Part shown: piece after piece, positions 1-64,000 of the stretch
Numbering within the stretch: the stretch's first letter is position 1
How the letters are laid out: each line of letters opens with the position of its first letter
Source of the DNA: Sistotremastrum niveocremeum HHB9708
Taxonomy: Eukaryota > Basidiomycota > Agaricomycetes > Sistotremastrales > Sistotremastraceae
Reading direction: 5' to 3'
Assembly: GCA_001630475.1 (NCBI GenBank)
Contig: KV419422.1
Span: 62,001-126,000 of the forward strand
DNA length: 64,000 bases
Program-made: the position numbers and the translations under genes
The notes under the pieces: generated by a model
What the model was told of the DNA's origin: nothing
The model's database searches: none
The model's input: only the letters and a program-made list of their open reading frames with translations

Positions 1-468
1 AAGAAGATGGCTGCTCATCAGGCTCATCAACTTGCGGATCAGAGATACGGAGGAGGAACTGGATGGGAATATGCTCAATCCCAGGGCGGGTATGCTCAAG
101 AATATCAATATGGTGGATATGGCGGCGGCGGCGGCGGTTATGGGGGAGGAGGGGGCTATGGGGGCGATCCTGGATATGGAGGCGGAGGCGGAGGCTACGG
201 AGGTGGTGGTGGCTATGGAGGCGGCGGCGGCGGCGGTTATGGAGGGGGAGGAGGTTACGATGGTGGTTACGGAGGAGGCGGAGGTTATGGCGGAGGAGGT
301 TATGCCCCTCCTCCTCCACAAGGTGGATATTACCCGCCTGGAGGAGCAGGTGGCTATGGCGGACCACCCCCAGGATATGGAGGACAACCTGGATACGGAG
401 GAGGATATGATTCAAATTTCCCACCACCGGAACATCACCATCACCACCACCACCGCGACGAATACTAG
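1..468 (+). CDS. Gly/Tyr-rich protein with His-rich tail (3' end only)
   Basis: The reading frame is open at the window edge (AAG AAG before the first ATG at 7), so this is probably the last exon of a gene that begins outside. The visible 155 residues are low complexity. A stretch of GGGGY-type repeats (about residues 40-100) is followed by a Pro/Gly/Tyr segment, then a run of seven His and a final RDEY before the TAG at 466-468. Such Gly-Tyr-Pro tails occur on fungal C2-domain, annexin-like and RNA-binding proteins, but no folded domain is visible here, so the family cannot be named. The codons mix GGC, GGA and GGT freely, which argues for selection on the peptide rather than a simple DNA microsatellite. 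Confidence 0.7.
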   Translation, partial: KKMAAHQAHQLADQRYGGGTGWEYAQSQGGYAQEYQYGGYGGGGGGYGGGGGYGGDPGYGGGGGGYGGGGGYGGGGGGGYGGGGGYDGGYGGGGGYGGGGYAPPPPQGGYYPPGGAGGYGGPPPGYGGQPGYGGGYDSNFPPPEHHHHHHHRDEY

Positions 469-643
469 TCACTTACAATCTCACCTGACGTATATGTGCA
501 TCTCATCTTCCTGTACCATAGTTATGTCGTTTTGCATTGGAATTCCACAACTGACCGACGAGGTGCTATTTGTATGTTCATTTTGAAAATGTTATACTGT
601 TGATTGGCTACTTCTGTCTGTCATCGAGATATGTTGGGTGAAA

Positions 644-15728: not shown

Positions 15729-17759
15729 ATGTTCCATCTCCATCGTCTCCAACCTCGGGCCTTTAGTCGCGTTTTATCGAGAACAGCGAGCACAAGCCAA
15801 TCCAGTCGCTCCTTCCGACGGCTAGCGACAAGATCTACGCTTGTCTCTATCGTCGGTGCTACAGGACTTCTGCTCTATAACAACCCTGTGCATGCTGATA
15901 GCGTTGCGTCTGCATCGTCAGAGAATGTACAAAGGCATCGAGAGCCGGCTTCCTTGTCTTCGTTGATCCGGTCGTATGGAGTCTATACAATCTGCTCAGT
16001 CCCAGTCATCGTCGATTGGTCTCCTGCCCTCTTGAAGTTCTTCACTTCTATAGTGGGATTGCGGGAATTGACTCAGATCGTCGTTCGGCATACCTTTTTC
16101 GCGCAGTTCGTCGGAGGAGATACCGTGAACGACACGATACCGCTGCTCTCGCACCTACGAAAGGAGAATAAGGGTGGACTACTGGCATACAGTGTCGAAG
16201 TTGATGAACACGAAGCAACCAACCATGACCGTATTCTATCATCCGGGAAAGTGCAGAGCCTGCCTGTTTACAAGCAGAACGTCGAGGAGATGATCCACAG
16301 CATCAACATTGCGGCAGATTTTGAAGCGTCATTAGGAAGCGTGTCGGGGGCTAGTAGGAAGACGTGGGTGGCATTGAAAATGGTGCGTCTAAGATTATTC
16401 TACGTTTCTATGCTTTCTTATTCTCTATAGACAGCTTTGACACCTTCGTCTCAAACTCTTATCAATTTCTCGGACTTTCTTCTCCAGAATCGTCCAAGTG
16501 ATTCGGGCGTAGTCTATCCGGGATTACCGCACCCTTCTGATCTGGATATTCTTGAGGAGAAGACATCGACAAAAACCCTACCTGCTTCCCTTTCACAAGA
16601 GGACATCAGAGCCCTTGTCGAACTTCGCGATGATCTATTCAGAATATGTAAACGAGCGCGAGAAAGGGGCGTTAAAGTGATCATCGACGCTGAATACACG
16701 TAAGTTTGCAGATTAGTCCCTTTTCGCTTCATACTGACGTGGATGTAGTTGGTATCAGGTGAGCAGCTGGCGATGGATTCATTGCCCTTTCTAATAAGAC
16801 ATGTAGCCTGCGATCGATGCCTACGCCCTTGCTTTAATGAGAACATTCAACAAGAATCCTTCAAGACGACCATCATCTTTCACCTCTTTATTCAACTCAA
16901 CTCCATCAATACCATCCCATGATACCCAACCCCTAATTTACGGAACTTTTCAGGCATATCTGCGCCGGTAAGAATTTCATCCACATGCCGGGATCTTTGA
17001 GCTTAATGTTATCATTCTCCCTCAGGACCCCTGAACATCTACAAGCTTCCATCAGAGACGCCAAACAGAACGGTTACTCCCTGGGAGTAAAGCTAGTTCG
17101 TGGCGCATATCATCCTCATGAAATAGAATATCATCGCAAACGTCATTCCTCCACTCCAACCTCTTTGCCGCCCGTCTGGCTCGAGAAACCGGAAACAGAT
17201 ACCTGCTACGATAATTGCATCCAAGTTCTTCTATCCGAGGTCAAGGATGATATCAAGAGCAAGGCAAATAATATCGGTGTTCTGTTCGGGACGCATAATT
17301 GGGTCAGTGCAAGGAAAGTTATAGAGGGATTGGCACGACATGGATTGGCATCTGTAGAGCAGAGCTCAGGAGCCGATCACGATCCGGTGATCAGGGTGGA
17401 TGACGACGTTTCTGAACGAATTGTTATTGGACAATTATATGGTGCGTAGCCTGCATCGCAATTGGGTTTCGCTGACAGCATACTTTGATCAGGTATGAGC
17501 GACGCACTCAGTGATTATCTGGTAGACCACGTCCGCTCTCCATCGCCGTTTGTTATTAAATATATCCCATATGGGGCGCTGGCCGAAGTTCGTTGCATTC
17601 CTCTCGTGAAAGAGACGCACTTACAAACGATATTTTCAGGTCATGCCATACCTCGGTCGTCGTGCCATCGAGAACAAAGCTGTTCTGGGAGGTCCCGGTG
17701 GGGCTTCTGAAGAACGTAGAAGAGCTGGCGCAGAAATATGGAAGCGTGTTTTCGGCTGA
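15729..17759 (+). CDS. PUT1: Mitochondrial proline dehydrogenase
   Basis: An FAD-dependent oxidase that converts proline to pyrroline-5-carboxylate in the mitochondrial matrix or inner membrane, the first step of proline catabolism. ATG 15729 begins an Arg/Ser-rich presequence (MFHLHRLQPRAFSRVLSR). The catalytic barrel shows LLAYSVEVDE and VKVIIDAEYTWYQPAIDAYA, the latter assembled through a 10-nt exon. Later motifs are GYSLGVKLVRGAYHPHE, VLFGTHNW, and YGALAEVMPYLGRRAIEN near the C-terminus (FAD and substrate residues in YLGRRA-EN). The stop is TGA 17757-17759. Several introns are visible, at about 16382-16430, 16700-16748, 16759-16806, 17443-17491 and 17590-17640. No defect is seen. Confidence 0.92.
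16749..16758 (+). other. PUT1: 10-nt microexon of proline dehydrogenase
   Basis: TTGGTATCAG lies between introns of 49 nt (16700-16748, GTAAGT...GATGTAG) and 48 nt (16759-16806, GTGAGC...ATGTAG). It supplies W-Y-Q in the conserved D-A-E-Y-T-W-Y-Q-P-A-I-D motif. Confidence 0.82.
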
Positions 17760-18002: not shown

Positions 18003-21000
18003 TTACGCACTCGTCAGCTCCTTGAATTCCGGTGCATGCGGTCCCATCTGTATTCTCTCAATCAGTGAATCGAACTGAGGCGCAATTCCTGGTGTAGCGA
18101 TCTTGCTCAAAGCCGCAATAGCTCTCAACGCACTCCGTTGCAGCTCGGCTGCGCGCTCCAGATCTAACTTGACCGTGTCCTTGTTGACAGCCATACCCTC
18201 CATGGTCTTCTGCAACGATGGTGCAGCCTGATCCAATCGTTGCGATACGGCCGTAGGTGCTATCTCTGCGAGACGGAACAACATCATGTGACAGATGACC
18301 TTGACTTCGTCGGCATCGTCCTTCAACCCATCGAGGACGTGTCCAAGATATTCATGGATATCGATCTTAGCCAAAGAGGTATCGAGCTGCGCGGAATGTT
18401 AAGCTATGTCAAGCGAAGGAAAATAGAAATGAACATACCAGAGTATACATAGTCTCGTATGCTGTTTTACGCCCTTCAAGACCTTCATCGACTTTATGTT
18501 GCCAAGGGCCCATCTGGACGATCTTGATGAGCTCAGATTTTAGCACCGTCTCTTTGTAGAGATGAGGAAGGATAGCATGGAGGTGGTTGCGGATCAAATT
18601 AGGCTTGTTCCTTGCAGCAGAGTTCAACGCAGCCAAAGCCAAACGGCGCACAGACTACTCATGTGTCAGATAAATCAACAGGCTTTCGAGGGGAAAACTT
18701 ACAAGATCTGGGTCTGTGATCAAAGCGAGGAACTCTGGTAAAACCAATGATAGTTGATCATCGTATGCAGGAGAGGTATCGGCAAAAGTGTATCGGATGG
18801 CCGAAATGACCGTGCCACGAATAGCAGGAGAAGGATCCCGAAGTCGGATCTACATTGCATTAGCAACATTGACGCCGAGATGTGTGGATGGACGAACCTG
18901 CAATTGAGGAAGATAACGTGAAGGGTTGGTCGTCGTCAACTTGCCGATTGAGGCGGCAGCAGCATTGTTCGTTGCCTCGTCCGTGACACCTGACGTTTGG
19001 AACAGAGGCTCCCAAAGTGTCTCGGCTACGCCCTCAAGTTGAGCATTAGAGCAACGAGAAACGACCTAAATTCACTCCGATTATCACAGCAATTCAGAGA
19101 GTTAGACATGTATTACCTCTTTCAAAGCTTGTAGAGCAAGTAACCGACGATCATCCGTCTGAACCATAGTGACGATGATAGGCAGGTATTTTTGTACATT
19201 CCCAATAGCCATGTTACCTGTTAATGAACGTCACATCGGATATACATACGACTTCCAGAATACATGACATACCGACTGCGAACGCCGCGGCCGATCTGAC
19301 CTCTTCTGATTCAGCGTCGAAATACTGGACAGCAGTTTCGAAGACGCTGGTTTGGTTAGCCATATCGCTATTGCCGGTGAAGGGTGAGACAAGCTTAGTA
19401 GATCAATATCACCATCACTCACACAGTCCGTCCAATCTCGCCCAACACCAAGAGACTTAATGTCTTCGACGCGTCAGTCGAATTACCCTATTATGGTCAT
19501 CAGAATCACCCAGATAACTCGGACAAACGAGACATACGCGAAGGCTCTTGGAGAATTCTGCAATAGTTCCCGCAATCATTGAAATCTCGACTCTCAGCAC
19601 TCTCTCAATCGATTTAGCAACATTGCTGGGAGCCGCGCTTCCCTTTTCTTTTGGAGCACTGTTGAAGCTGCCAATTAAGTTGCTGATAAGTCTCGTGGCA
19701 ATTGGTCCATCGGCAGTGACGAGCGAAGTGTAGAAAGTCAAGAGAGAGTCAAGGGATGAACCGGATATGAGAGGCGAATAAGTGAGGTCGTAGATATCTT
19801 TGAGAAGATCCTTTTCCACGGATGGATAGGTCGCCTTGGGGGATGTTTGGAGAAGAAGGGAGACAATGGAGATAGCTTGAGAGAACAGCGATATATCTGA
19901 TACAGTGAGATACTGATGAAGCAGCTGTAATAACGCAGGTGTCGGAGTGTAAGGGTTGGAAGTCGATTGTCTAAAGATGATCAGAGCGGTCGAATTCGGA
20001 GGGAAAATGAAACACACTTCTGCAAGAGGGCGAACAGACAGCCGAAAGCTTCCAACTTGCCCACACGTCCTTGCTTCTTGAGCACTCCTGAGACCCACTC
20101 AATACTCGCGTCGAACCATCTGGAGTCCATCTCAGCCTCCTTAGCAACTTTGGTGATAACCCTGATCGGCGTCTCAGTGCGTGTGGTTGAACGAAGGATA
20201 TAATCCCATTCATTGCCCCCTCTTGTCTTCATAGCTTCATTGGCACAGATCCAAAGATCACCAGCGCACTCTTCAGCGCGTTCTCGGATTTCGGAATCGG
20301 TGTCATTCGATTTAAGACGTGTGATGACTTCTTGATGAACGTCTCCTAGCCAGGCTTCTGATTTGACGGGTCTGAGCGCGTTCAGAAGGGCGGAGAATAT
20401 GCGGAAGGACTCCGCGACAACCCGGGGATGTTTTTCTCTGAGGGAGGATAGGAGAGAAGGGATAATGGACGAAAGTTGACCAGTGAAGATCACAGGAGAG
20501 TGTGTAGAGAAGAAGAGGGAGAGGAAAGACAGGACGATCGCATGCAGTGGAGCAGTGGTCGTAGTGACAGATCCAGCTAAGACTGTCTTGCAAGTCGCGA
20601 AGAGTGTTTGAGTCTGACCTGAAAGCGAGCCGGGGAGAACGTGCAATAACGAGATGAGCAGTTCGAATCCAGACTGAATCACCGCAGAACTCGTCTTGGG
20701 TCCTTTCAATTGACCAAACAAGGCTTTGGCAAGCGAAGGGACCTGGCCCTCGAGAAGCCGAATAGGGCTGCCTTCCACTTCCATGCCTTCCTCGTCTTCG
20801 TTTCTTTTTCTCTTGCCAACTCCGGGGCTTTTGGCTCGTGTATGCAGAGAAGCGTCGCCATACAAGGCGGTTTGAGAAAGAAGGACTCGATAAGTCGCCC
20901 AGACTTCGAGTTTAACGGATTCTTCGCGATCACCGAAACGAGAGATGAGGGCTGGTGAGACGTCTCTGTAGAGTGTTGCGAGGAGTTCTGGACGAGTATC

Positions 21001-22519
21001 GATGACGGCTGCAAGAAGCTTAGCCGACGAGCGACGGATTTTGTAAGAGGTGTCTTCGTCGTCAGAATATCTGTGTAGCATATGAAGTTGTAGTTGGCTT
21101 GACTGGAGAGAAGAGTCACTTACCCTTCGAGTTCCTCGTCGTCGTCATCAGCATCATCCATCTCTGCATCCTCATCATCATCGTCTCCAGCATAGTTCTT
21201 TACAGTCCGTCAATCCACAGATTCAAAATCAAGACATGCGTCACTCACTGGATCATACTTGATCAATCCAACACCCAGAGCCACAATATCCTTCAAGAAT
21301 GGCGTGATCTCACTAGGACACCTCAAAACAATCGTTTCAACAGCCCTCAAGCCGCTCTCCCTCAGTTCCGCATCATCCTGATTCGTAGCTTTGAGTACGC
21401 CTGGGACGACGTCTCCCAAATCCGCAGCGATTTTCTGAGGTGCATATCGTGCGATGGCTGCAACCAATTGGACCACTGTTCGCTTGGATTCAAGGTGCGA
21501 AGATGCAAGGCCGGGGATGATGCTCTGTCTCAGTAGAGATTGGAACTGCTCGGGAGTCGATGTGGGGAGGAATTGGGCTACATCGCATTCATATTAGGAT
21601 GACAGCAAGGAGGGTGGCACGAAATATTACCAAGAGTCAGGATGGCTTGCTTGCGGACTGCAGGACGCGAGTGTCCTAACAAAGGAGTTATAGCACTAAC
21701 AGGAGCTGGTTGGATGTTGGGATCTGAGAGGTATGCTGGGAATCGAGTAATCAGAATTGAGAGAATGGACAAGACTTCGATCAGGGATTCTTGTCTCGCG
21801 CTCGGCTGCACGTGGACAGTGTATCATCAGCTTCTAATTCCTGAAGATTCAAACAACGGGAAATCGAACTCACGTCAGCGACCTGTGTTAAGAGTTTGGG
21901 AGTCAACTTGAGGCAGGTCTTTTGTGCGATCTTTCCCTCCAGTGGCAGTTCAGCGGTGATTGTCTTGAGCGCTGCGACCGTCGAACTCAGAAATCGGTAC
22001 GAGTTCGAAGTCAATCGAATGCATACCAAGAGCAGCAATATCTCGAGTCTCTTCGTCCTTGTTCGACGACAAATCGATCAACCTCTCCATAAGAATGTCC
22101 ATCTGAGCCTCTCGAATGACCTTGGTTATCTGACCCAAACTTGACACATGTTGCATGTTATCAATCATTTCGTTTGTGAAGGAATGACAACGCACCATTT
22201 AACGGCTTGATTTTTGACTTCTGAGATCTTGTCTTCGATAAGGAGCAAGACATTCTGCAAGACTCGATTCTCGACGCCCTCGTCACCCACGAAACTCGAG
22301 GGATCTTGTTTGATGGCATTTGTGATATCGCTCAAGGCCATGTACCTATTATCAGCCGTCCATCGTCAGAGTGTGCGATCACAATGCAAGCGGGGCACGA
22401 GTACCGGAAATCCTGGTCTGGCGATGCCATCTATACATTCCATTAGCTTCGGGGACAAAGAGACAGACGAATTTAGTAACCTTTTCAATGTAGCTGTTCA
22501 TGACATATACTTTCGTCAT
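18003..22519 (-). CDS. CAND1: Cullin-associated NEDD8-dissociated protein CAND1
   Basis: A HEAT-repeat solenoid that wraps unneddylated cullins and acts as the exchange factor for F-box and other substrate receptors of SCF-type ubiquitin ligases. ATG 22519 gives MTKVYVMNSYIEKM; a second ATG at 22501 is also possible. The spliced order matches the family: DITNAIKQDPSSFVGDEGVENR, DIAALGMHSIDFELVP, RPAVRKQAILTLGNI, and CPSEITPFLKDIVALGVGLI. The acidic loop (encoded about 21120-21200) precedes SYKIRRSSAKLLAAVIDTR and VSPALISRFGDREESVK, followed by QVPSLAKALFGQLKG. The C-terminal TIP120 domain has ALAALNSAARNKPNLIRNHL, LPHLYKET, VQMGPWQHKVDEGLEGRK and the end PEFKELTSA. The stop is at 18003-18005. 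Length is about 1,250 residues, as expected, and introns are short. Confidence 0.94.
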
Positions 22520-34986: not shown

Positions 34987-36761
34987 ATGCGTCTTCGTCT
35001 TCGACGGACTGTTTCTCTGCGATTCCTTAAAGGATGGTTCGAGCATGCTACAGATAGACATTATCTACTTAGCAAACTCCTCTACTCGACTTCATCCAAT
35101 TCTACTTCGGGTCCAGAGAGACAGAAAGCTGAAGAACCGAAGGTTAAAGCTCCTTTATATCGTGCGTTTTCATCTTCTATTAATGTGTGATGGGGAAATG
35201 AAGGCTGATGGTGTGGTGATAGGACGGGTTGCTGAAGCTTGGAAAGAGACTCCGACGACTTGGTATCCTCTCCCCGTAGCAGTCGGCGCTCTCCTCCTCG
35301 TCGCACTCCAATACCGCAAAAAGCGCTCAGAAAGAGCCGAAGTCGACTCTTCCCCCGACGGCTCCCAAGTCGTCCGTCTCAAAGGTCCATGGCAGGTACC
35401 CCTCCCCCATCTGCTATACAGTATTGTACATACTGATGCTAATCGATCGCTTAGGTCCACGTCCTCGGCGCCCTCCCTCTCCGAAACATGTCCCGCGTAT
35501 GGGGATACCTCAACTCCCTCGAACTACCCATCTGGATCCGACCAACAGGCTTCCGTCTCTACTCCTTCATATTCTCCGCCGACCTCTCCGAAATCGAACA
35601 TTCATCCGATCTCACGAAATACGTATCCCTAGGCGACTTCTTCTATCGTCGTCTTAAACCTGGTTCGAGACCTATTGCGGAGGCTTTACTTGTAAGTCCG
35701 GCGGATGGGAGGATATTGCATCTTGGAGAGATTGATTCGGAGGGTGATGGGAGGGTTGAACAGGTTAAGGGGTTGAGTTATTCGCTTGATGCGTTGCTTG
35801 GTGTTGAGAGGGGGGAGAAGGGAGAGGGGAAGGATGTGATTGAGGTGCCGTTTAAGAGGGGGGATTTGGAACATGTGGACGATAAAGAATTCGCAAATGT
35901 CAACGGGATCGAATACTCTCTCGATCAACTGATAGGACGAGGAGGCTCTCCGGCCAAAGATGGACCAGCGGACGCATCGGTGGAACAACCTGCTGGATCT
36001 ACGATTCGCGATGCGAGCGTTGCGATGGAGGTTGGTGTCAGACCTGGGATCGGACGAAAATCATCGTTTTCGGAATTGAAAGAAGGGAGTGGGCTTTTCT
36101 TTGCAGTTATATATCTTGCGCCGGGGGATTATCATCGGTTTCATAGTCCTACTGCGTGGGTTGTCGAGCGTCGTCGACATTTTGCTGGTGCGTCCCCTCC
36201 TCTCCCTTTTATTTTTATTTGTTGGATGTGGGGCTGATGAGAGGGTGTAGGTGAATTGTTTTCTGTGTCGCCGTGGATGGCGAGGAGGCTTGCGAATTTG
36301 TTTGTGTTAAATGAACGAGTTGCGTTACTTGGACGTTGGAAACATGGTTTCTTCTCCATGATACCCGTAGGAGCCACAAACGTCGGCAGCATCAAAATCA
36401 ACTTTGACGAGGTACCTCCCCTCCCCTCCTTCCCTTCTTCTCTTTTCTAACAAATCTAACCCAATTTTCACAGGCCCTCCGAACGAACGTCCGAGGCCGT
36501 AAACCCCCCGCCGGCACATTCACAGAAGCAGTCTACTCAGCCGCCTCTCCCATCCTGCACGGACAACCTCTAAGACCCGGACAAGAGATGGGAGGATTCA
36601 GTCTTGGGAGTACGATTGTATTGGTATTTGAGGCTCCGAAGGGGTTTGGGTTTAGTGTTAAGGCGGGGGAGGTTGTTAGGGTTGGTCAGGCGCTGGGGGA
36701 TATTGGGCCTGCTGGTGCCTCTGAGTCGGAAGAGGTCGCTGTGGTCCAGTCATCCTCATGA
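34987..36761 (+). CDS. PSD1: Mitochondrial phosphatidylserine decarboxylase
   Basis: A pyruvoyl enzyme of the inner mitochondrial membrane that makes phosphatidylethanolamine from phosphatidylserine. ATG 34987 begins an Arg-rich presequence ([18 protein letters not shown]). After a 61-nt intron (35162-35222) comes a membrane segment [20 protein letters not shown]. The catalytic domain shows [69 protein letters not shown], and [20 protein letters not shown]. The self-cleavage motif LGST lies in [16 protein letters not shown], near 36600. Cleavage there yields the small alpha chain of about 50 residues. Between VSPADGR and the APGDYH block is an extended insert with two YSLD-LLG-like segments. 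The stop is TGA 36759-36761. Confidence 0.94.
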
Positions 36762-38670: not shown

Positions 38671-39814
38671 TCAAAGAAGTACCTCCACGATGTTATTGTT
38701 CCCCACAGGTTGGTAGAACACGCTTCCGACGTGATCTCCCGCATTACCAGGGGCGAAAGCAGCGGACGCCAAAGCACCCTGGCCATCGACATTAGGATTG
38801 GTAATATCTCCCGTGAAGGAATTTATGGGCCCCCTCCAGCCTGAGCTCCGATTCTTGCCAACCTTCTCTATCTTTTGGATACCGTCGTTGTCACCATCGT
38901 AGTATATGTGGATTTTACTCGTGCTCCACATGGTGACTGTGATGGAACCGGATTTACTAGCCGGGCAGTCGGGGAGTTCGAGAGCCTCACAATGGCTAGG
39001 GTCGTCGTACTCGTTATACACCGAAGCGCCTGCGAGTTTTTGGTCCTCGTCTAGCCAAGCAACAGTGACAACTCCTAAATCGTGCGTGTTATCGGTGTCG
39101 GCACCGATGGGAGTGCCGGGGAGTGGCTGACCTCGGGAGATGATCGAATCTCCCCCGTCAGTCCACTTCTTAGTCTCAGAGCTCCATCTGCATTCTCTGA
39201 TGCATCCGCTAGTGTCCTGATAATAAAGTCGAATATAGGGGTCCGAATACTCTGTAGCAGCCAACGCCGACAGAGAAGAGAGGTTACAGGTAGGGACTAT
39301 TCCGTTGTACGACCAGACATCAATGCCTTCAGACTTCACCCAGTCTTTAATCTGGGGCGAGCCACCACTCTGGTCGATATAGTAGATGTGGATCGCGGGA
39401 TTGGCGGGAGGTATGATGTTGTCATCGCGGGGATATGCGATGGCTGCGAGGGGTGTTTTGGAGTTGACGGTGAAGACGGGTTGACTGCCTGGCTTCCAGG
39501 CGCCGTTGTCCCACTTTACTTCGTGGACGCTGAAGTTGGAGCCTTGGTAGTAGACGCGGATGTGAGGTTTCTCTAAGAGAAGTTCAGTATATGACGCGAT
39601 TTCGGAAGCTTAGTGACGCACTTTCATCTCTATCGACCCAGAATGTGCAGGCGAGGGCAGTAGAGGCGAGAGCTTGAGCAGATGCCACTGAGAGTGAAGC
39701 TGATGTGAGAGTACGATGAGTTATGTGGTAGAGTATGCGATGCTCTGGGTAGATGCTTTTACTTTGAATGAACGAGAGGTTTATATACCTCACGATGTCC
39801 GGTCTCTCAATCAT
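38671..39814 (-). CDS. Fucose-specific lectin, Aleuria aurantia (AAL) type
   Basis: A six-bladed beta-propeller lectin that binds L-fucose between its blades. It is usually cytosolic and implicated in fungal defence or glycan recognition. The main exon, 38671-39572, carries repeated blade motifs of the form I-R-V-Y-Y-Q...I-E...W. Examples are PHIRVYYQGSNFSVHEVKWD, PAIHIYYIDQSGGSPQIKDW, YIRLYYQDTSGCIRECRWSS and KIHIYYDGDNDGIQKIEKVG. The last repeat is AGDHVGSVFYQPVGNNNIVE. Exon 1 ends at 39622 (STALACTFWVDRDE), across a 49-nt intron. The only in-frame ATG for it is 39814, giving 364 residues. A TATA box at 39780-39789 conflicts with that start. Using ATG 39627 with the neighbouring AG acceptor gives about 301 residues but loses part of blade one. 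The family assignment is firm and the start is not. Confidence 0.85.
39780..39789 (-). promoter_or_regulatory. TATA box, GGTATATAA core
   Basis: Minus-strand AGGTATATAAACC, matching the core at 37731-37740. If it is functional, transcription would begin near 39750, downstream of the only in-frame ATG (39814) of the longer lectin model. Confidence 0.5.
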
Positions 39815-45942: not shown

Positions 45943-48900
45943 ATGTCTGAATCAGAGAATTTTGACCTCGATAACGTGTCTGCCTCCGAGGAGTCAGAGG
46001 ACTATGCTCCAGCACCTAAGAAGGTCAGCTTCTTTCGTCCAAGTCCTGATTCTGACTGACTGATTCCGATTCATCAGTCGAAGGCGCCTGCCACCGCGAA
46101 GGCAACCGCAAAATCAGCTACGACCAAAGCTGCCAAAGCTCCTGCTAAGGCCAAGGCTGCGCCTAAGAAGAAGACTGCAGTCTTGAAAGAGATCCATGAC
46201 AATGGGAGCGAAGATGACGCGAAGAGCGGTTCAGATGATGATGGGGCGTACGGAGGGGCGAAAAGAGTAGAAGCCACAGAGGATGATGAAGTCCCGATCC
46301 ACAATAAGGGCAAAACCGCACACGAGAAATATCAAGTGGTGAGTCTGCTATCATATGAGTTGCGAAGATGACACTCATTAGGGCTGTAGCTTGATCAAAT
46401 CGAGCATATCCTGAAGAGACCGGACTCCTATGTTGGCAGTTTGGAATCTATCCGTCAGAATATGTGGGTATTTGATTCAGAAACGAAGCGTATGGTCTTC
46501 AGGTACGTACCTTATAGCTTCCGTTTTACACGTGCTAACAGGGTAGGTTAGAGAGATCAAATATGCGCCCGCCTTCTTGAAAATCTTCGACGAAATCCTT
46601 GTCAATGCCGCGGATAACAAAGTCAGTGATGTTCCGTGCTTTTTGCCAGAAACGTTTCGACGTATAACAGGTCAACGATCCCAACATGGACACGCTCAAA
46701 GTCAATATCGATATCGAGAACTCATCGATCAGCATTCATAACAACGGAGCCGGGATTCCCATTGTCATCCACGAAAAAGAGAAAGTGTACATTCCCCAGA
46801 TGATCTTCGGTCAACTCCTCAGTTCCAGCAACTACGATGATACCGAGAAGAAAGTGACGGGCGGTCGTAATGGTTACGGCGCCAAGCTTACCAACATCTA
46901 CTCGAAAGAGTTTACAGTGGAAACCGCAGACAAATCTACGGGTCTTCTCTATAAACAGACTTGGACGGATAACATGGGTAAACGAGGCAAGGAAAAGATC
47001 ACCAAAAACACCAAAGGAGCCGAGTACACGCGAATCACCTTCAAACCCGACTTGGCACGTTTCGGCATGGATTCCATCGATGCTGATATAGAAGCTCTTC
47101 TCATGAGACGCGTTTACGATATGGCGGGCACCCTCAAGGGCGTCAAAGTTTCTCTCAACGACGAGAAGCTCAAGATCAAGGGGTTCAAGTCCTACGTGGA
47201 AATGTACCTCTCTTCTATGTCAGAGAACGCCGAAGGCGGTGAAGCTGGGGCTCAACCGAAACAGACAGTGATCTATGAGCAGATCAGTCCACGATGGGAA
47301 GTGGCTTTCGCTCTATCCGATGGCTCCTTCCAACAGATCTCTTTCGCCAACGCCATCGCTACGACGAAGGGCGGAACCCACGTTACTCTCATCGCAGACC
47401 AAATCGCCAAGAACCTCATAACTGGCATCACTAAGAAGAACAAAGGCGCTACCGTGAAGCCTGTGCAAATACGGAATCAGATGTTCATATTCGTCAACGC
47501 GCTCATCGAAAACCCTACGTTCGACAGTCAGACCAAGGATACCTTGACGCTCCCAGCCAGCAAGTTCGGAGGTAGTAAACCTCAAGTATCGGACGAATTC
47601 ATGAAGAAAGGCAAGTTGGTATCGCCTATCTAGCTCGGTATGATGATATTGATATCTTCCAGTATCGAAGTCTGGAATTGTTGACAACGTTTTGAACTGG
47701 GCCACACGAAAGGCCGATGAACTGAACAAGAAGACTGACGGATCCAAGAGAACTCGGTATGAATTTAGTGATCAGATCATTTTCCTATGAACTAACCGCC
47801 CATCATGAACAGTTTGACAGGTCTCACGAAGCTCTCTGATGCTAACAATGCGGGCGGACGTAATGCTTCAAAATGTACCCTCATATTGACCGAAGGAGAC
47901 TCCGCCAAATCTCTTGCAATGGCTGGTTTAACTGTCGTTGGACGCGACAACTTTGGAGTTTTCCCGCTGCGAGGAAAGCTGTTGAACGTTCGAGAAGCTC
48001 GACATGATCAAATTATGAAAAATGAAGAAATCCAAGCTATCAAGAAGATCTTAGGTTTGCAACACAACAAGCAGTACGATTCCGTCAGCTCCTTGAGATA
48101 TGGCAGCGTCATGATTATGACAGATCAAGTTTGTCGTACCCACTTTCTCTGCGAACGTCTGTCTAAACACTTAGTTCAGGATCACGACGGTTCGCACATC
48201 AAGGGGCTTCTGATAAATTTCTTCGAACACTTCTACCCATCATTGCTCAAGATCCCCAGTTTCTTGGTGGAATTCGTCACTCCCATCGTCCGAGTGAGTT
48301 TCATTACTCCCTTGACGATCGTCCTCCCTTTGACCGCTAGCACAGGTAACGAAAAAGAGCAACAAGAAAATCCGCAAAGATTTCTTCACCATCCCGGAGT
48401 ATATCGAGTGGTTCAATACTACCCCGGATGTTCATGCCTGGGATCCAAAATATTACAAGGTCCGTTTGTGTCTGTGTTATCATGCCCTGCCTCATAAAGA
48501 ACCAGGGTCTTGGAACGAGCACCGACGCCGACGGCCGAGAGTACTTCCAAGATATGGAAAGGCATTTAATTCCCTTCCATGCTACGCAAGAGGGAGACCA
48601 CGAGCTCATTGAGCTGGCATTCGCAAAGAAGCATGCAGATGCTCGTAAAGAGTGGCTGCGTCAACTCAAGGTATGGATAATCTACCTACGATTATTGTTA
48701 AGTCTGACACACACCGTGCAGCCTGGGACTTTCCTGGACCATTCTGCTGACGAGATCACTATATCTGATTTCATCAATAAAGAACTCATTCTGTTCTCTA
48801 TGGCGGACAACATTCGTTCCATCCCATCCATCGCAGACGGATTGAAACCTGGCCAACGTAAAGTCATATGGGCATGTTTCAAACGAAACTCGAACAATCA

Positions 48901-51413
48901 GGTCAAGGTAATCAATACCTCATTCTCTAAGCCCGAATTCGGACTAACTTGACAAAGGTCGCTCAATTGGTCGGGTACATTTCCGAACACTCCGCTTACC
49001 ATCACGGTGAAGCCAGTCTCGTGTCTACCATTATCAATTTGGCCCAAGATTATGTTGGGAGCAATAATATCAATCTCTTAGAACCCGCCGGACAGTTTGG
49101 ATCTCGTGCAGCAGTATGATCTTTGGCTTTCGTTGCATTCATACGACTGACGTTCTGATCAGGGTGGAAAAGACCACGCTTCTGCGCGTTACATTTTCAC
49201 GCAACCCTTGCCTATTAGTCGATACATCTTCCATCCCGCAGATGATCCTATCTTGAAGTACCAGGTCGACGATGGCAAGAAGGTAGAACCTGAATATTAC
49301 ATGCCGATCGTGCCTCAGCTTCTCGTGAATGGGTCTGAAGGCATCGGCACAGGTCAGTTTCTCAGAGAGTAATGTTTGATCCCGGCTCATCCAAGGACAG
49401 GTTGGAGCACTCACATTCCTTCTTATAATCCGTCCGATATCGTCGCGAACATAAAAAGATTAATCAAGGGAGAGGAGATGGTGCCAATGTGGCCATGGTG
49501 GCGCGGATACAAGGTATGTTATATCCACAGAAGCATGTCCGATATCTGATGTTTCGTTGAAGGGTAACCTGAAGAAGACGGGAGAAAGCAAATGGGACGT
49601 TTGCGGGATCGTCGAAAAGATCAAGGATAACACAATCCAAGTCACTGAACTGCCGATTCACAAGTGGACCAATACCTTCAAGGCCGAACTGGACGAGATG
49701 TACGGTGAAAAGGGCGATGGTCCAGTCAAGGTTTTAAAATCCTTTTGCCGGGTTAACTAGGCTTTACTTAAGGCGTCTTAGGATTTCCGTGAGAACCATA
49801 CCATGGCGCATGTAGATTTCACCATCTCCATGACGGCCGAAGGGATGGCGAAAGCTGAACAGCAAGGACTGGAGGACTATTTCAAACTCACGACGAAGCT
49901 GAGCACTGGCAACATGATCTGCTTTGACTTTGAGGGGAAAATCCGGAAGTACGACACTCCCGAACAGATTTTGGAGGACTTTTATCCAGTTCGACTAGCG
50001 TTCTATCAAAAGCGAAAGGTATGCATTGTCCACGGCGGAGTGCTCTGCCGGTTTCTTATCACTGTCTAGGATTACCTTTCAAACGAACTCGAACAAGAGT
50101 TGGACAAGATCAGCAATCAAGCGCGGTTCATCCAGATGATAGTCAACAAAGATCTGGTGATCTCGAACCGCAAGAAAGCCGATATTGTTGCCGAATTGCG
50201 TACCCATAAATTCAAGCCTATCCCCAAAATTACCAAAACCAAAGCATCAGCCGAAGAGGATGCTGTTCTCGAAAATGCGGAAGAGATTGAGGCCGTCAAA
50301 GAGGAAGAACAGACCACTGGCGCACCTAGCGACTTCGATTATCTTCTGGGGATGGCAATCTGGAGTCTTACTAAAGAAAAGGTTGGGGCAACGTACCTGT
50401 TGTATTCTTTCAGCTCTCTGAAAAGTGGCCGTAGATCCAGAAACTCCTCGAGCAAGCAGCAGAGAAGGAGCACGAGCTCAAAGTGCTCCTCGGCGTCTCC
50501 CCCGCGGAAATGTGGATCAGGGACCTCGATGCCTTCTTGGTTCAGTGGGAGGTCAGTGACACGTTTAGGTCATGAATCTGCCAGGCTCTGATATCCGATA
50601 GAAAACTCTCGATGAATGGACTCGATTGAAGGTCAAGGGCGAAGACGGCAAGGGCATCAAGCCAAAACAGACGACCATCCGGACGCGTAAATCGATTGGC
50701 AAAGGCAAAGGAAAGAAACAGCGCGATGAATCGGAAGACGATTCAGAGGACGATTTCAGGCCTACCAAGGCCACTGCAAAGGCAGCGCCGAAGAAACCGG
50801 CCAGCGAGCTGAAGACGACCACGGCGAGAGCGGCTGCTAAGGATAAGATGGACGTAGATCCTAAACCTCCACCCCGGGCTAAGCCAGCTCCGAAGAAAGT
50901 CGAAACCGATTCTGACATCGACGAAATCCCGCCACCTGACAAAGGCAAAGGCAAAGCTAAGGCTTCGCCAAAGAGAAAATTGTAAGTTGCGATCGTATTC
51001 GATTTGGCTCGGGCAATAACAATTGTTTCAGGTCTGAAACGGAAGACGATGACGATGACGACATGTACATCAAGCCTGTCAAGAAGGCGAAGACTACAGT
51101 CGCCAAAGCAAGTAGTGGAACTCTCGACACATTCCTTGAGCCACCGAAACCTGCTGCCAAGCCCACCGCCAAAGTCAGCAAAGTCAAAGCCATGGCCCCA
51201 AAGAGCCCGCCGAAGCCGAAGAAAGCTCCGGCAAAGAAAGTCATCGACAGCGACGACGAAGTAGAAGACTCTATGGACGATACGCCTCCAGCTCGTGCTC
51301 CAGCACCTGCAAAGCGCAGTCCGAGAAGAGCCGCGAAAGCACCTGCGAAGTATATTGACATTTCTTCTGAAGATGACAAGGACGAAAACGACGACTCGTT
51401 TGTATTAGAATAA
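45943..51413 (+). CDS. TOP2: DNA topoisomerase II
   Basis: The ATP-dependent enzyme that passes one DNA duplex through a double-strand break to decatenate chromosomes in mitosis. ATG 45943 gives MSESENFDLDNVSASEESED and a Lys/Ala-rich N-tail. The ATPase domain shows LKRPDSYVGSLES, KIFDEILVNAADNK and the ATP loop GGRNGYGAKLTNIYS. The TOPRIM domain has LTEGDSAKSLAMAGL, PLRGKLLNVREA and QDHDGSHIKGLLINFFEHFY. The cleavage domain has SAYHHGEAS and AGGKDHASARYIFTQPLP, with the catalytic Tyr in ARYIFT, and GSEGIGTGWSTHIP. A charged C-terminal domain of about 250 residues (KKPASELKTTTAR; SPRRAAKAPAKYIDISSEDD) ends at TAA 51411-51413. It has more than ten short introns and no visible damage. Confidence 0.96.
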
Positions 51414-59885: not shown

Positions 59886-62117
59886 CTAGAATTTGATCTT
59901 TGTGGGCGCAGCACTGGCTGGAATATCATTCCGGAAGAAGGCACCATACGCTCCGTGCTCTTTCTTCTTGATAGTCATCGGGAATTTCTTGAGCCCTTCG
60001 GCCTCAAATCCGCTTTCTCTCATAACGCGCGCGAGCTCACCGGCCAACGCACGTTCGTGCAAATCACCCGTAAAATAAGTGATCGCTTTTCCCGACTTGC
60101 CAGCGCGACCTACGGACATCATGTGAGTCATAGTATGTTCATAAGCCGAAGGTACCGTACCCGTCCGTCCGATACGGTGAATGTAATCCTCGATGGTAAG
60201 AGGGAAAGTGTAATTGATGACGGCGGCAACATTCGGGATATCAAGGCCTCGCGCGGCTACATCGGTTGCAACCATAACCCGTGTCTTGCCAGTTTTGAAA
60301 TTCTCGAGCGCCTCCATGCGCTGATTTTGAGACAAATCGCCATGCAGCCCTCCAACTTTGAACCCTTGCCGCCGCAGATTCTCCTCGACTCGAGCAGCTT
60401 CCTTTTTGTAGAGAGCGAACACAAGTATCAGGGAGTCATCTCCTCTCCCTTTGGAATCCGCCTGGAGTTGGCGTAGCAATGGAAGGAGCCTGCGACTGAG
60501 AAAACACCGAATGAGCCGTCTGTATCCCCAGAAGCACAGCAAAGAACATACTCTTTCGAACGAGCATCGTCAAACACCTCAACAACTAGGGAACATGTTA
60601 GATGGTGTCGACAGATCACAGTTGTGCCAAAATTTACAGACTTTGTTCCACTCTACTGTTGGCTGTTAACTCATCTTTTCCGACAGTGATTCTGATGGGA
60701 TCTTTGAGGAATGTGCTTGCAAGCTTGCGGATGGAATCAGGCCATGTGGCACTGACTTTACAACTGCTCAGCGGGAAAGATAGAAGGCAAATAGGGTGAC
60801 GTACACATGAGAGTCTGGCGATGAGACGAATCAGATGTTCGTTCAATGATCTGTCTGATATCGTTTTCGAACCCCCTATCAAGCATACGATCGGCCTCAT
60901 CTAAAACCAAGTACGTGACGCTATGCATACTTCAGTCTCGGCAAGCAGAGAAGATGTCAAAAACATACGCGCTGAGGTCACAGTCTCCCTGATTCATGAG
61001 ATCCAATATACGTCCGGGAGTCCCAGTGACAATTTGGCAGTTTGAAGCCAAATCGTTAATTTGAGCGTCCTTCGAGACACCTCCGAAAACGCAAACACTT
61101 TTGAGATTGAAAGGACCTCCGAATTTTAAGAACGTCTCATGCGTTTGCAAAGCGAGCTCTCTGGTGGGTGCAACAACCAGCACGGAGATGCCTGATGCTT
61201 CGCCTCTTTTTCTTTTCTTCGACTTTTGTGTCAAGGGGGATTCCTTTATCAATTTGGATATGATGGGCAGAGCAAAAGCCAGGGTTTTGCCGCTGAAATG
61301 GGATGTTGAGACTAAGGATCTCAAATACGGCACTGATTTGAGCTCACCTGCCAGTCTCTGCGATACCGATCACATCCTTCCCAGCCAACAGTCCTGGCCA
61401 AGCACAAGCTTGGATGGGAGTGGGGTTTTTGAACTCGCTCAAAAGTGGCCTCAGTGAAGGCGCAATGTCCAATTGGTCGAATGAAAGGATGGGAGTAATT
61501 TCGCCGGAAGTCGGAGAAGTATGGATGACGATGGAATTGGCAGCAAGGAAAGCATCGATAGCGTCGGATGAGGGTTCTAGAGAAGAAGGTTGATTGGCTG
61601 TCGAAGTGGATGCGTTGTTTTCTGGAGAAGTGTTTTCGGAGGCTGCAAGCGCTGCTTTCTCAGCCTTTTCTCGACGTTTTCGAGCTTTCCTGGCTTCCTT
61701 GCTCTCCTTCTCCGGTGCAGCATCTCCACTGACTGGAACCTCTGCAGAACCATCGAGATTGGATTCGCCAGAAGGAGCAGGAGTTTCGTCAGGCGTAGGT
61801 AGCTCTCTCTGGTTGTCCGTCGGTTGGGCCTCTAGTAGCTGCCTCTTTCGCTTCTTCTCCTTCCTAGCAGCTTTCTCGGCAGCCTTATCGACTTGAGCGT
61901 CCATGTCGAGCTTTGATCCTTGATTGACCAAGCTCGCATTCTCGTCCGCTGGCGGCGGCACATCCTCATCTTGACTCTTCTTCCTCTTTTTCACTTTTGC
62001 CGCCTTACCCACATCTCCGTTGACAACCTCGTCTGCTTTTCGTTTCTTCTTCTTGGAAATTTTGATAGTGGAATCTTCGTGAGCGGGAGGTGGATTGGAA
62101 ATAGACTGCGCAGACAT
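59886..62117 (-). CDS. DBP3: DEAD-box RNA helicase DBP3
   Basis: A nucleolar ATP-dependent helicase for 60S pre-rRNA processing. ATG 62117 ([20 protein letters not shown]) starts a Lys/Glu-rich, nucleolar-type N-terminal domain of about 240 residues ([20 protein letters not shown]). The core has the Q-motif region [20 protein letters not shown] and motif I AETGSGKTLAF, split by an intron at about 61290-61347. Then come [26 protein letters not shown] and [13 protein letters not shown] (DEAD, near 60895). The C-terminal RecA lobe shows [35 protein letters not shown] and [11 protein letters not shown]. The end is [17 protein letters not shown], with the stop at 59886-59888. A SAT-type motif ([12 protein letters not shown]) near 60745 is also visible. 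The gene is intact. Confidence 0.92.
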
Positions 62118-62789
62118 AGTAACCAAAAGCCTGTCAGTGGAAGCAGGCAGAGAAAGTTGACAGGCGCCTAAAACATTTTGCCGCCCGTCAATGTCTGTCA
62201 ATGTGGGCACAGACGTTAGCGCCCGGTGTTCACTCTGGATAGTACAGGATTCCAAGAAATATATATGTCTTATCAACTGAGCACGACTAATGCCTTCATT
62301 CAAATGGATCTCACATTTAAGAAGAAACAACTGGACGCTGCCGCATCAGTGGCAGATACAAATGTCTTGTTGCAAGATACAAATGAGCGTAGCACAAAGC
62401 AAAAACTTTCTACGGAACCGGTGTTGCATGTCATCAGGGTCGTTCGTCAAGTTGAAAAGCACTGAATGGATAGCATAATGTTACATCTAGGATGATATCT
62501 AGGAGATCACGCATAATCGAACCAGCACAGGGGCTATGTCCGTGAGGCAGAGAACTCCAGTGGGCTAGTGATCCAACGATTGGACACGAACGCGACGGTT
62601 TCCCGGTAGCTCGACTGAATGCCGAGGATTGAACGACCGATTGACGTGATAATGAGCAATCGGAGTGCCAGAAGGAATCACCAGCGACGGTGACAACGTT
62701 AGCAGCACACTCCTCCCAGTCCCTCTCAGTTCCAAAACATGGTAGGAAAGAGAGATAGCGCTGAGAGCTCCCACATGACTCACAGAAAA
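62118..62789. other. Upstream region of DBP3
   Basis: No gene is supported. Around 62655-62680 there is a weak, damaged match to the repeat unit of the array that follows (GCAATCGGAGTGCCAGAAGG), and CAGTCCCTCTCAGTTCC at about 62716-62732 also resembles its spacer. Confidence 0.4.
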
Positions 62790-63530
62790 CGGTCAACCTA
62801 GCCGAAACAGCAACCGGAGTTGCCGAACAGGAAGATTGTCGTCTCGCCAAGCGAAACCGTGATCAGTCTAGTCCAAAGGACAGCAAGTCATAAAATGCCG
62901 AGGGTGGTTGACCAAGCCAACGCGACAACAGGAGTTGCCACGCTAGAACGGCCATCGACTCGCCGGGCGAAACCACCCCCGTCCCCCGCTCCTCACAGCT
63001 CTCAGAAGAGGTTGCGCGCTGAAGGACAGCCAAAGCTGCCCAGTCAGGGAACCTTCTCTTTCAGTTCCGAAGAACAGCGAGCCGGACAGATCCAAATGGT
63101 CAACCAAGCCAACTCGACAACCGAAGTTGCCAGCTAGGAAGGTAGATGCCTCGCCGAGCGAATCCATTTGCAATTCACGCATCAGCGCCACGTCTCTCAG
63201 AGATTGGTCAACCACACCGACACGACAACCGTAGTTGTCGGCCAGGATGGTTGTTGACTCGCCAAGCGAAACCAATTCTCTTCAGTCTCAAAGGACAGCG
63301 AGACGGACAGCCACAGAATGGTCGACCAAACCGAGCGACAACCGCAGTTGCCGCCGAGAAAGGTCGTTGACTCGCCGAGCGAAACCATTCCATCTCAGGA
63401 CTCACAATAACTCTCCGGTTGTGGTAGTCTAAGCCGAAACAACAGCCGCAGCTGCTGTGACAGGAAAGCCTATGTCTCGCCGAGCGAAGCCACTTCCTTC
63501 CAGTCCCGAGGGACAGCGAGTAAGAGTCAC
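62790..63530 (-). repeat. Degenerate tandem array, six units with a conserved hairpin
   Basis: Six diverged units begin near 62791, 62905, 63098, 63206, 63320 and 63423 (spacing 115, 193, 108, 114 and 103 bp). Each contains, on the plus strand, a word like GGTCAACCAAGCC, then an inverted repeat around CGACAAC-cgna-GTTGYCG. After that come GACTCGCCRAGCGAAACC and a spacer with AAGGACAGCGAG. The hairpins lie at 62808-62825, 62921-62942, 63115-63132, 63223-63240, 63334-63355 and 63439-63458. Read on the minus strand the stems pair with G-U wobbles and compensatory changes. The loops are TCCG, TCCT, TTCG, TACG, TGCG and TGCG. Minus-strand frames give peptides like MVSLGESTTFLAGN, but the units are not in one frame. 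Confidence 0.75.
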
Positions 63531-64000
63531 CATGAGAGGCTGCTGCTGAGGGTGAAGTGAGCGGGGTGGAAGAGAGGTGAAGACCAGTTTTCCCAGGGTC
63601 GATTCTCTTTTATGCAAAGCATTCGAGGCGTGACGCGTGTGACACAAGTAAGAATAGACATTCGTAAAGGGGAGATGGGAAGGCAGCGCACGGTCAGTCA
63701 AGTTGAGCTCGACCAAATGTGAATTAATAGGGTTACTGTATACAGGGTCAATGGCTGCTGAAGTATACGGAAAGCATCACGGAAATCACTTCAATCAGTC
63801 ACCATAGTTTCAGAATTACAAAGCAGGCAGTTTCGAGCATCAAGGGTGATTATGAGCTGCCAGTGGTTTGTGTCCGATAGCTCGTTGAAGGGGTTGAATT
63901 CAACTCCGACGTACTATTTTGGCATGAAAGCCAAACATGCCAATACATCGGAGTTTCCCTTCACAGAATACGCTTCCGTTGGGATTTCCAGCCTGGGCAA
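63531..64000. other. Window end, no gene seen
   Basis: 470 bp after the repeat array. A minus frame reaching from 63716 into the array has no recognisable motif. I see no splice-supported exon and no repeat unit. Confidence 0.35.

What the first reader, a model, noticed from the sequence alone, without database searches (positions are those of the whole stretch)
62790..63530. Tandem array of six hairpins with compensatory changes and UNCG-type loops
Seen: six diverged units each hold an inverted repeat. On the minus strand the pair at stem position 2 from the loop is A-T in units 1-5 but G-C in unit 6. Position 5 is G-C in unit 1, G-T in units 2, 3, 5 and 6, and A-T in unit 4. Position 6 is G-T, G-C or A-T. 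Every stem keeps at least 7 pairs, whereas the plus strand has A-C mismatches at the same places. Five of six four-base loops fit TNCG closed by C-G, the very stable UNCG RNA tetraloop class (known biophysics). Inference: the units are kept as RNA structures transcribed from the minus strand, or are descended from one. No known basidiomycete RNA family comes to mind.
Basis: partly seen in the sequence, partly recalled or inferred. Interest (0 to 1): 0.75.

Follow-up and report, generated by a model that had tools for sequence, protein, structure and literature searches.

The report
Tandem array of three-way-junction RNA units
Between two genes of a fungus lies a single array of six old, diverged copies of an RNA fold, each a three-armed junction whose arms have kept pairing while their letters changed, which looks like an undescribed structured non-coding RNA, although nothing yet shows that it is transcribed or what it does.

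Summary
On the minus strand, 62783-63502 holds six ~85-nt units (plus a decayed seventh at 63004-63059), each a three-way junction: closing helix P1, a near-invariant 13-nt hairpin P2 (UUCGCYYGGCGAG), and a long hairpin P3 capped in five of six units by a UNCG loop whose N takes all four bases. Of 191 cells 90.6% form standard pairs; 13 of 32 pairs show changes on both sides, reached by 0 of 500 shuffles. When 5' arms are re-dealt to 3' arms of other units, only the true one of 720 assignments makes as many pairs. The minus-strand reading carries 30 G-U cells against 3 A-C. No Rfam family fits; the only intact copies found in the 34.7-Mb genome are here. Best reading: a non-coding RNA that offers several copies of one protein-binding module. 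A rival is that P2 copies pair with each other: a whole-array fold pairs P2 of units 6/5 and 3/2. The RNA constraint is well supported; transcription, partner and function are inferred. No homologue from another species could be examined.

The parts
63415..63501 (-). unit 6 (5'-most on the minus strand): three-way junction, loop UGCG
   Evidence: cmsearch 82.7 bits, by construction; weakest own fold, z -0.17
63312..63396 (-). unit 5: three-way junction, loop UGCG
   Evidence: 92.1 bits, by construction; z -3.25
63198..63283 (-). unit 4: three-way junction, loop UACG; best folded
   Evidence: 93.8 bits, by construction; z -5.63
63090..63175 (-). unit 3: three-way junction, loop UUCG
   Evidence: 87.1 bits, by construction; z -1.72
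63004..63059 (-). seventh, decayed unit: P1-like stem and P3-like hairpin with UUUG loop, P2 lacking
   Evidence: local model hit 63018-63047, 11.8 bits, E 0.013; fold z -2.5 minus (5 of 300 shuffles as low), -1.6 plus
62898..62984 (-). unit 2: three-way junction, loop UCCU (not UNCG)
   Evidence: 92.3 bits, by construction; z -4.72
62783..62868 (-). unit 1 (3'-most): three-way junction, loop UCCG
   Evidence: 85.9 bits, by construction; z -2.81, but its own minimum-energy fold differs from the consensus
63476..63488 (-). P2 hairpin UUCGCYYGGCGAG, near-invariant; other copies 63371-63383, 63258-63270, 63150-63162, 62959-62971, 62843-62855
   Evidence: mean pairwise identity 0.93 against 0.53 in P1
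63503..63514 (-). linker hairpin GUCC-CUCG-GGAC before unit 6; related linkers at 63285-63296, 63064-63075 and 62871-62881
   Evidence: linker alignment; isolated energies -3.7 to -5.5 kcal/mol, the 63285 and 62871 copies with 6-nt and 3-nt loops; coordinates read by eye
63607..63615 (-). TATA-like GCATAAAAG upstream of the array: possible promoter element
   Evidence: seen in sequence; not tested as a promoter
63728..63735 (-). TAACCCTA, telobox-like or telomerase-template-like octamer
   Evidence: by arithmetic any octamer is expected about a thousand times on both strands of 34.7 Mb, so weak
61344..62117 (-). probable N-terminal exon of a DEAD-box helicase gene, next gene downstream, same strand (ATG read at 62117)
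   Evidence: Helicase_C in 59886-60542, solved DEAD-box relatives; the exon itself has no Pfam match, so the link between the two is inferred from position

Best explanation
The region encodes, on the minus strand, a structured RNA built from an old tandem array of one three-way-junction module. Shown by covariation: each unit has a closing helix P1, followed without a linker by a 5-bp hairpin P2 of nearly fixed sequence, then four unpaired bases and a long hairpin P3 with a pyrimidine-rich 3x3 internal loop and, in five of six, a UNCG cap; the arms of each unit have changed together. Inferred: it is part of an RNA polymerase II non-coding transcript that starts near 63.58 kb and ends below 62.78 kb. 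Inferred: P1 and P3 are scaffold, free to change as long as they pair, and hold P2 and the junction as the recognised surface, so that one transcript offers six copies of a binding site to one RNA-binding protein, as a decoy or assembly platform. The partner is unknown.
For: Covariation in P1, P3a and P3b (7, 3 and 3 pairs with double changes), none in invariant P2; RNAalifold, not told the structure, finds 30 pairs of the same three-way junction, 12 with double changes. The cognate arrangement beats all 719 others over all arms outside P2 and in P1 energy; by P1 pair counts 4 of 720, and by P3a pairs 12 of 720, reach the cognate value. Divergence is graded: P2 0.93 identity, P3b 0.77, P3a 0.56, P1 0.53, as expected if sequence matters most in P2 and the apical hairpin. 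UNCG loop with N in all four states. Minus-strand G-U excess. No second locus found, so not a dispersed element.
Against: No transcript data. Only paralogous units of one locus were compared, so shared descent inflates the counts, and no R-scape test was possible. In a computed fold of the whole 896-nt stretch most junctions do not form: mean P1 probability 0.65, 0.09, 0.00, 0.52, 0.05, 0.04 for units 1-6, P2 above 0.11 only in unit 4; units 6 and 5 share 24.5 expected pairs and units 3 and 2 share 20.9. Unit 6 is not more stable than shuffles. The seventh unit has lost P2 and one of six lacks the UNCG loop. The model also gives a plus-strand match of 20.8 bits in the array, as expected of inverted repeats but not one-sided. 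Nothing identifies a bound protein.
Confidence: 0.38

Rival explanations
1. P2 is fixed because its copies pair with each other, not because a protein reads it: neighbouring units, or two transcripts, dimerise through P2, as inter-repeat pairing is proposed for the Xist A-repeat.
For: In the whole-array ensemble P2 of unit 6 pairs with P2 of unit 5 (9.3 expected pairs) and P2 of unit 3 with P2 of unit 2 (10.4); isolated P2-P2 duplexes are computed at -15.6 to -17.0 kcal/mol against -3.3 for each hairpin.
Against: Any hairpin is nearly self-complementary, so such duplexes are cheap to predict. P1 and P3 have kept pairing within units. In the ensemble unit 4 keeps its own P2 (4.3 pairs within), and units 4 and 1 do not join.
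Confidence: 0.12
2. Cluster of separate small RNAs: each unit, or each pair of units, is cut out of a precursor and acts alone, as in snoRNA clusters.
For: Units are discrete, 105-116 nt apart except around the decayed one, and linkers alternate between two types, one with its own small hairpin, as if a two-unit block had been duplicated. A TAACCCTA box lies upstream; telobox-like sites mark snoRNA promoters in budding yeast (recalled).
Against: No snoRNA family at gathering score; the one sub-threshold C/D-box match (sR36, 12.6 bits against 55) is on the plus strand outside the units. The ACA, hinge and C/D boxes were looked for by eye only.
Confidence: 0.16
3. Hairpin precursor of small interfering or microRNA-like RNAs cut by Dicer.
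For: Strong hairpins in tandem; microRNA-like RNAs are reported in basidiomycetes (search listing); a sub-threshold match to a microRNA family, mir-1000, in unit 6 (16.4 bits against 50, E 3.6), most likely chance.
Against: A microRNA-like locus should keep one 19-25-nt arm (recalled); here P1 and P3a arms vary most and the 13-nt side hairpin is fixed. A three-way junction interrupts the duplex. Fungal loci are said to have short hairpins (passage of PMC9757828).
Confidence: 0.1
4. Cis-acting leader of the downstream DEAD-box helicase gene, for example an autoregulatory site.
For: Same strand, next gene, and the product belongs to a family that acts on structured RNA.
Against: About 665 nt separate the last unit from the ATG at 62117, with a TATATATTT stretch between them; a strict intron rule finds no intron there, though the rule found only two introns in the whole neighbouring gene and so is insensitive.
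Confidence: 0.11
5. Relic: the units descend from a functional RNA but are now decaying as an old minisatellite.
For: The seventh unit has lost P2, unit 6 folds poorly, units 1 and 6 each have two adjacent mismatches in P1.
Against: Neutral decay at the observed divergence keeps 78-80% of pairs, 90.6% observed, 0 of 5000 runs; P2 is intact in all six full units. Tandem Repeats Finder does not list the array, so it is not a young satellite.
Confidence: 0.08
6. DNA-level palindromes, for example paired binding sites of a transcription factor.
For: TCGC-N3-GCGA in P2 and GTGGTTGACCAA-type inverted repeats.
Against: P1 arms are more than 60 nt apart, vary and still match their own partner; G-T pairs are tolerated mostly on one strand.
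Confidence: 0.03
7. Part of the telomerase RNA, with its three-way junction repeated.
For: UAACCCUA upstream on the same strand; the template of Ustilago maydis is given as UAACCCUAA, and its ter1 holds two 90-bp repeats (passages of PMC10035886).
Against: Eight, not nine, template letters; it lies upstream of the TATA-like site; the short hairpin is on the 5' side of the junction, not the 3' side as in CR4/5 (recalled); no telomerase RNA with six such junctions is known to me (recalled); TTAGGG x4 has no exact match in the assembly, and an 11-nt template has 21 matches elsewhere.
Confidence: 0.02

Closest known systems
Xist A-repeat
   Same: tandem copies (8.5 in human) of a short RNA module with a UNCG-like AUCG loop, proposed as a platform for protein binding and multimerisation (passages of PMC5742192)
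   Different: Xist units are 26 nt and are mostly thought to pair between repeats; here each unit's own P1 and P3 arms have changed together, the unit is an 85-nt three-way junction, and the host is a fungus; P2-P2 pairing between units remains possible
meiRNA of fission yeast, CsrB/CsrC of bacteria (recalled)
   Same: one transcript that holds many copies of a protein-binding site and titrates the protein
   Different: those sites are short linear motifs or GGA loops; no partner is known here
Conserved structural RNAs found in fungi by covariation (PMC8216456, passages)
   Same: fungal structured RNAs detected by covariation
   Different: that screen used Ascomycota genomes; its main text has no occurrence of 'tandem' or 'three-way junction'
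Hammerhead and other small self-cleaving RNAs (recalled)
   Same: three-way junction in tandem copies
   Different: no Rfam match; the CUGAUGA and GAAA core strands were not seen at the junction by eye

Membership tests
Any Rfam 15 family | score at or above the family's gathering threshold | tested here: not met
   0 matches in the 64-kb window; three sub-threshold matches (E 1.8 to 4.2) in 62200-64000
Xist A-repeat-like platform (works like) | tandem structured units with stable tetraloops | tested here: met
   six units, five with UNCG loops
Xist A-repeat-like platform (works like) | pairing between repeats | tested here: inconclusive
   P1 and P3 arms pair best within units, re-dealt arms lose about 19 of 143 pairs; but the whole-array ensemble pairs units 6/5 and 3/2, with P2 supplying 9.3 of 24.5 and 10.4 of 20.9 of those pairs
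Xist A-repeat-like platform (works like) | bound by a silencing or other RNA-binding protein | not testable with these tools
   no binding data
microRNA-like precursor | one conserved 19-25-nt arm and phased small RNAs | tested here: inconclusive
   P1 and P3a arms are the variable part; no small-RNA reads to examine
H/ACA or C/D snoRNA | ACA/hinge or C and D boxes in fixed positions | tested here: inconclusive
   no Rfam match at gathering score; boxes looked for by eye only
Telomerase RNA | template of about 1.5 telomere repeats, pseudoknot, CR4/5 junction | tested here: inconclusive
   8-nt UAACCCUA only; no pseudoknot test was made
Young minisatellite | near-identical tandem copies | tested here: not met
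   Tandem Repeats Finder lists no row here; mean column identity 77% over the aligned units

The most novel reading that the evidence does not exclude
A previously undescribed class of fungal long non-coding RNA made of tandem three-way junctions, in which a near-invariant side hairpin (P2) is held out in six copies, either for one RNA-binding protein or for P2-P2 docking between units: an independent fungal counterpart of the Xist A-repeat whose scaffold is kept by pairing within each unit.
Probability: 0.3. Interest if true: 0.8.

Novelty: new variant of a known kind. Interest (0 to 1): 0.62.

Why it matters
Structured RNAs of basidiomycetes seem little explored: the fungal screen seen here used Ascomycota genomes (passages of PMC8216456). 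An array whose units covary among themselves within one genome gives evidence of RNA structure without a second species, and it separates a variable scaffold from a fixed hairpin, so a pull-down with one unit could name a partner directly. If transcribed, it would be a compact test case for how repeated RNA modules gather proteins or each other.

Tried and rejected
Rfam at gathering and relaxed thresholds: nothing credible. tRNA scan: none (bacterial settings). Other copies in the genome: a DNA search finds only this place; the exact 13-nt P2 pattern has eight matches, six in the array and two elsewhere (backwards control: two), and those two score only 11.2 and 10.1 bits with the model; a two-part pattern has four matches, all in the array (units 2 and 4 differ from it by a loop or stem letter). 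The model finds no further full unit in the window or in 18 kb to its right. Viral contigs: two-part pattern 0 hits; a second pattern two hits, both 16.3 bits, E 0.011. Bacterial genome contigs: five hits, best 18.7 bits, E 0.0019; these were picked for holding P2, so they are taken as chance against 82.7-93.8 bits for the units. Search for fungal contigs among viral contigs by neighbour genes: one helicase at 43% identity, none for the ABC-F fragment. Closing stem between the two ends of the array: not better than shuffles, 161 of 300. Introns in the array by a strict rule: none, but the rule is insensitive. Literature: the listed titles and abstract starts of five paper searches show no report of such an array; the library lacks most subscription papers.

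Full report
What was checked. The finding describes six hairpins at 62790-63530 with compensatory changes on the minus strand. Reading the sequence and the repeats confirms six units; a 31-nt stretch with the fixed motif recurs at spacings of 116, 191, 108, 113 and 105 nt.

The real structure. Aligned on the minus strand (A2), each unit is a three-way junction. P1 (columns 5-14 with 78-87) closes it; P2 (UUCGC-YYG-GCGAG) follows without a linker; four unpaired bases lead to P3, made of P3a (5 pairs), a 3x3 pyrimidine-rich internal loop, and P3b (12 pairs) with a UNCG loop in five of six. RNAalifold, not told this structure, returns 30 pairs of the same fold, 12 with double changes. The stated structure has 32 pairs: 90.6% of 191 cells paired, 13 pairs and 19 cells with changes on both sides, covariation score 0.373; 0 of 500 shuffles reach these four values, while the number of further pair types is reached by 22 of 500; sliding the partner by 1-3 columns drops pairing to 26-49%. 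The structure was drawn from these same units, which favours it against slid versions.

Two controls of my own. A star-like neutral simulation with the same number of changes per unit keeps 77.9% (uniform sites) or 80.1% (sites weighted by observed variability) of pairs and gives 3.3 or 6.0 double changes; observed 90.6% and 20 (this script's count; 19); 0 of 5000 runs reach either value in either model. Second, 5' arms were combined with 3' arms of other units. Over all 27 pairs outside P2 the cognate arrangement makes 143 of 162 pairs, others 124 on average, and it alone of 720 permutations reaches that value; the P1 energy sum likewise 1 of 720; P1 pair counts 4 of 720; P3a 12 of 720. So each unit's own arms have changed together.

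Strand. G-U makes up 30 of 192 cells and A-C 3 (two pairs that are U-G in all six units supply 12 of the 30); a plus-strand reading makes 122 of 162 pairs. Fold z-scores for units 1-6 are -2.81, -4.72, -1.72, -5.63, -3.25, -0.17 on the minus strand and -0.28, -1.28, -1.89, -3.68, -2.44, -0.31 on the plus strand, so units 3 and 6 are no better on the minus strand. Against 313 windows of 86 nt elsewhere in the window (minimum -32.2 kcal/mol on the minus strand), units 2, 4 and 5 fold lower than all, units 1, 3 and 6 do not (energies; G+C not matched). The 896-nt stretch has z -4.21 minus (20 shuffles, none as low) and -1.15 plus (5 of 20). The model scores a plus-strand match of 20.8 bits inside the array.

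Against the junctions. In the ensemble of the whole stretch mean P1 probabilities are 0.65, 0.09, 0.00, 0.52, 0.05, 0.04 for units 1-6, and only unit 4 forms all four helices above one half; P3b has 0.30 to 1.00. Units 6 and 5 share 24.5 expected pairs and units 3 and 2 share 20.9, of which 9.3 and 10.4 are P2 with P2; isolated P2-P2 duplexes are computed at -15.6 to -17.0 kcal/mol against -3.3 for one P2 hairpin. Tandem copies of any hairpin can mispair in this way in a computation, but docking of P2 on P2 is a serious rival to protein recognition as the reason why P2 is fixed.

Which parts are fixed. Mean pairwise identity is 0.93 in P2 with its loop, 0.77 in P3b, 0.70 in the apical loop, 0.61 in the internal loop, 0.56 in P3a, 0.55 in the joining strand and 0.53 in P1. 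The apical loop keeps U and C in six of six and G in five of six while N takes all four bases. P1 and P3a behave as scaffold; P2 behaves as a sequence that is itself needed.

Seventh unit and linkers. Between units 3 and 2, 63004-63059 holds a stem with a P3-like hairpin and a UUUG loop but no P2; the model finds it weakly (11.8 bits, E 0.013), and its fold has z -2.5. Linkers alternate: those before units 6, 4, the decayed unit and unit 1 share a CTYGCTGTYC stretch and a small hairpin, those before units 5, 3 and 2 are shorter and different, so the array probably grew by duplication of a two-unit block.

Surroundings. On the same strand, upstream lies a gene with an ABC-F ATPase domain and downstream a DEAD-box helicase gene; the likely first exon, with an ATG at 62117, has no Pfam match of its own. 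A TATA-like GCATAAAAG at 63615-63607 and a pyrimidine-rich stretch precede the array. No tRNA and no Rfam match at gathering score.

Interpretation. The RNA-level constraint on the minus strand, present or past, is the firm result (about 0.9 in my judgement). That it is a separate non-coding transcript, and that P2 is a protein-binding site offered in several copies, is inference from the pattern of conservation and from analogy with the Xist A-repeat (passages of PMC5742192), meiRNA and CsrB (recalled). No comparison with another species was possible: the searches of the collections on hand gave no fungal relative.

Noticed in passing
63728-63735 (-): TAACCCTA upstream of the array on the same strand, resembling a telobox or a short telomerase template.
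   Followed up: partly
genome-wide (G000): TTAGGG x4 has no exact match in the assembly, while its backwards control has three; telomeres are perhaps not assembled or use another repeat.
   Followed up: no
38671-39339 (-): Fungal fucose-specific lectin domain (Fungal_lectin, E 5.5e-8).
   Followed up: no
46686-50591 (+): Probable type II topoisomerase gene in several exons (DNA_gyraseB in 46686-47633; further exons judged from the ORF list).
   Followed up: no
1-470 (+): Glycine- and tyrosine-rich low-complexity reading frame with tandem repeats of 39 and 57 nt.
   Followed up: no
19981-21081 (-), 35488-36237 (+), 16985-17449 (+): CAND1-like repeats, phosphatidylserine decarboxylase and proline dehydrogenase domains.
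   Followed up: no
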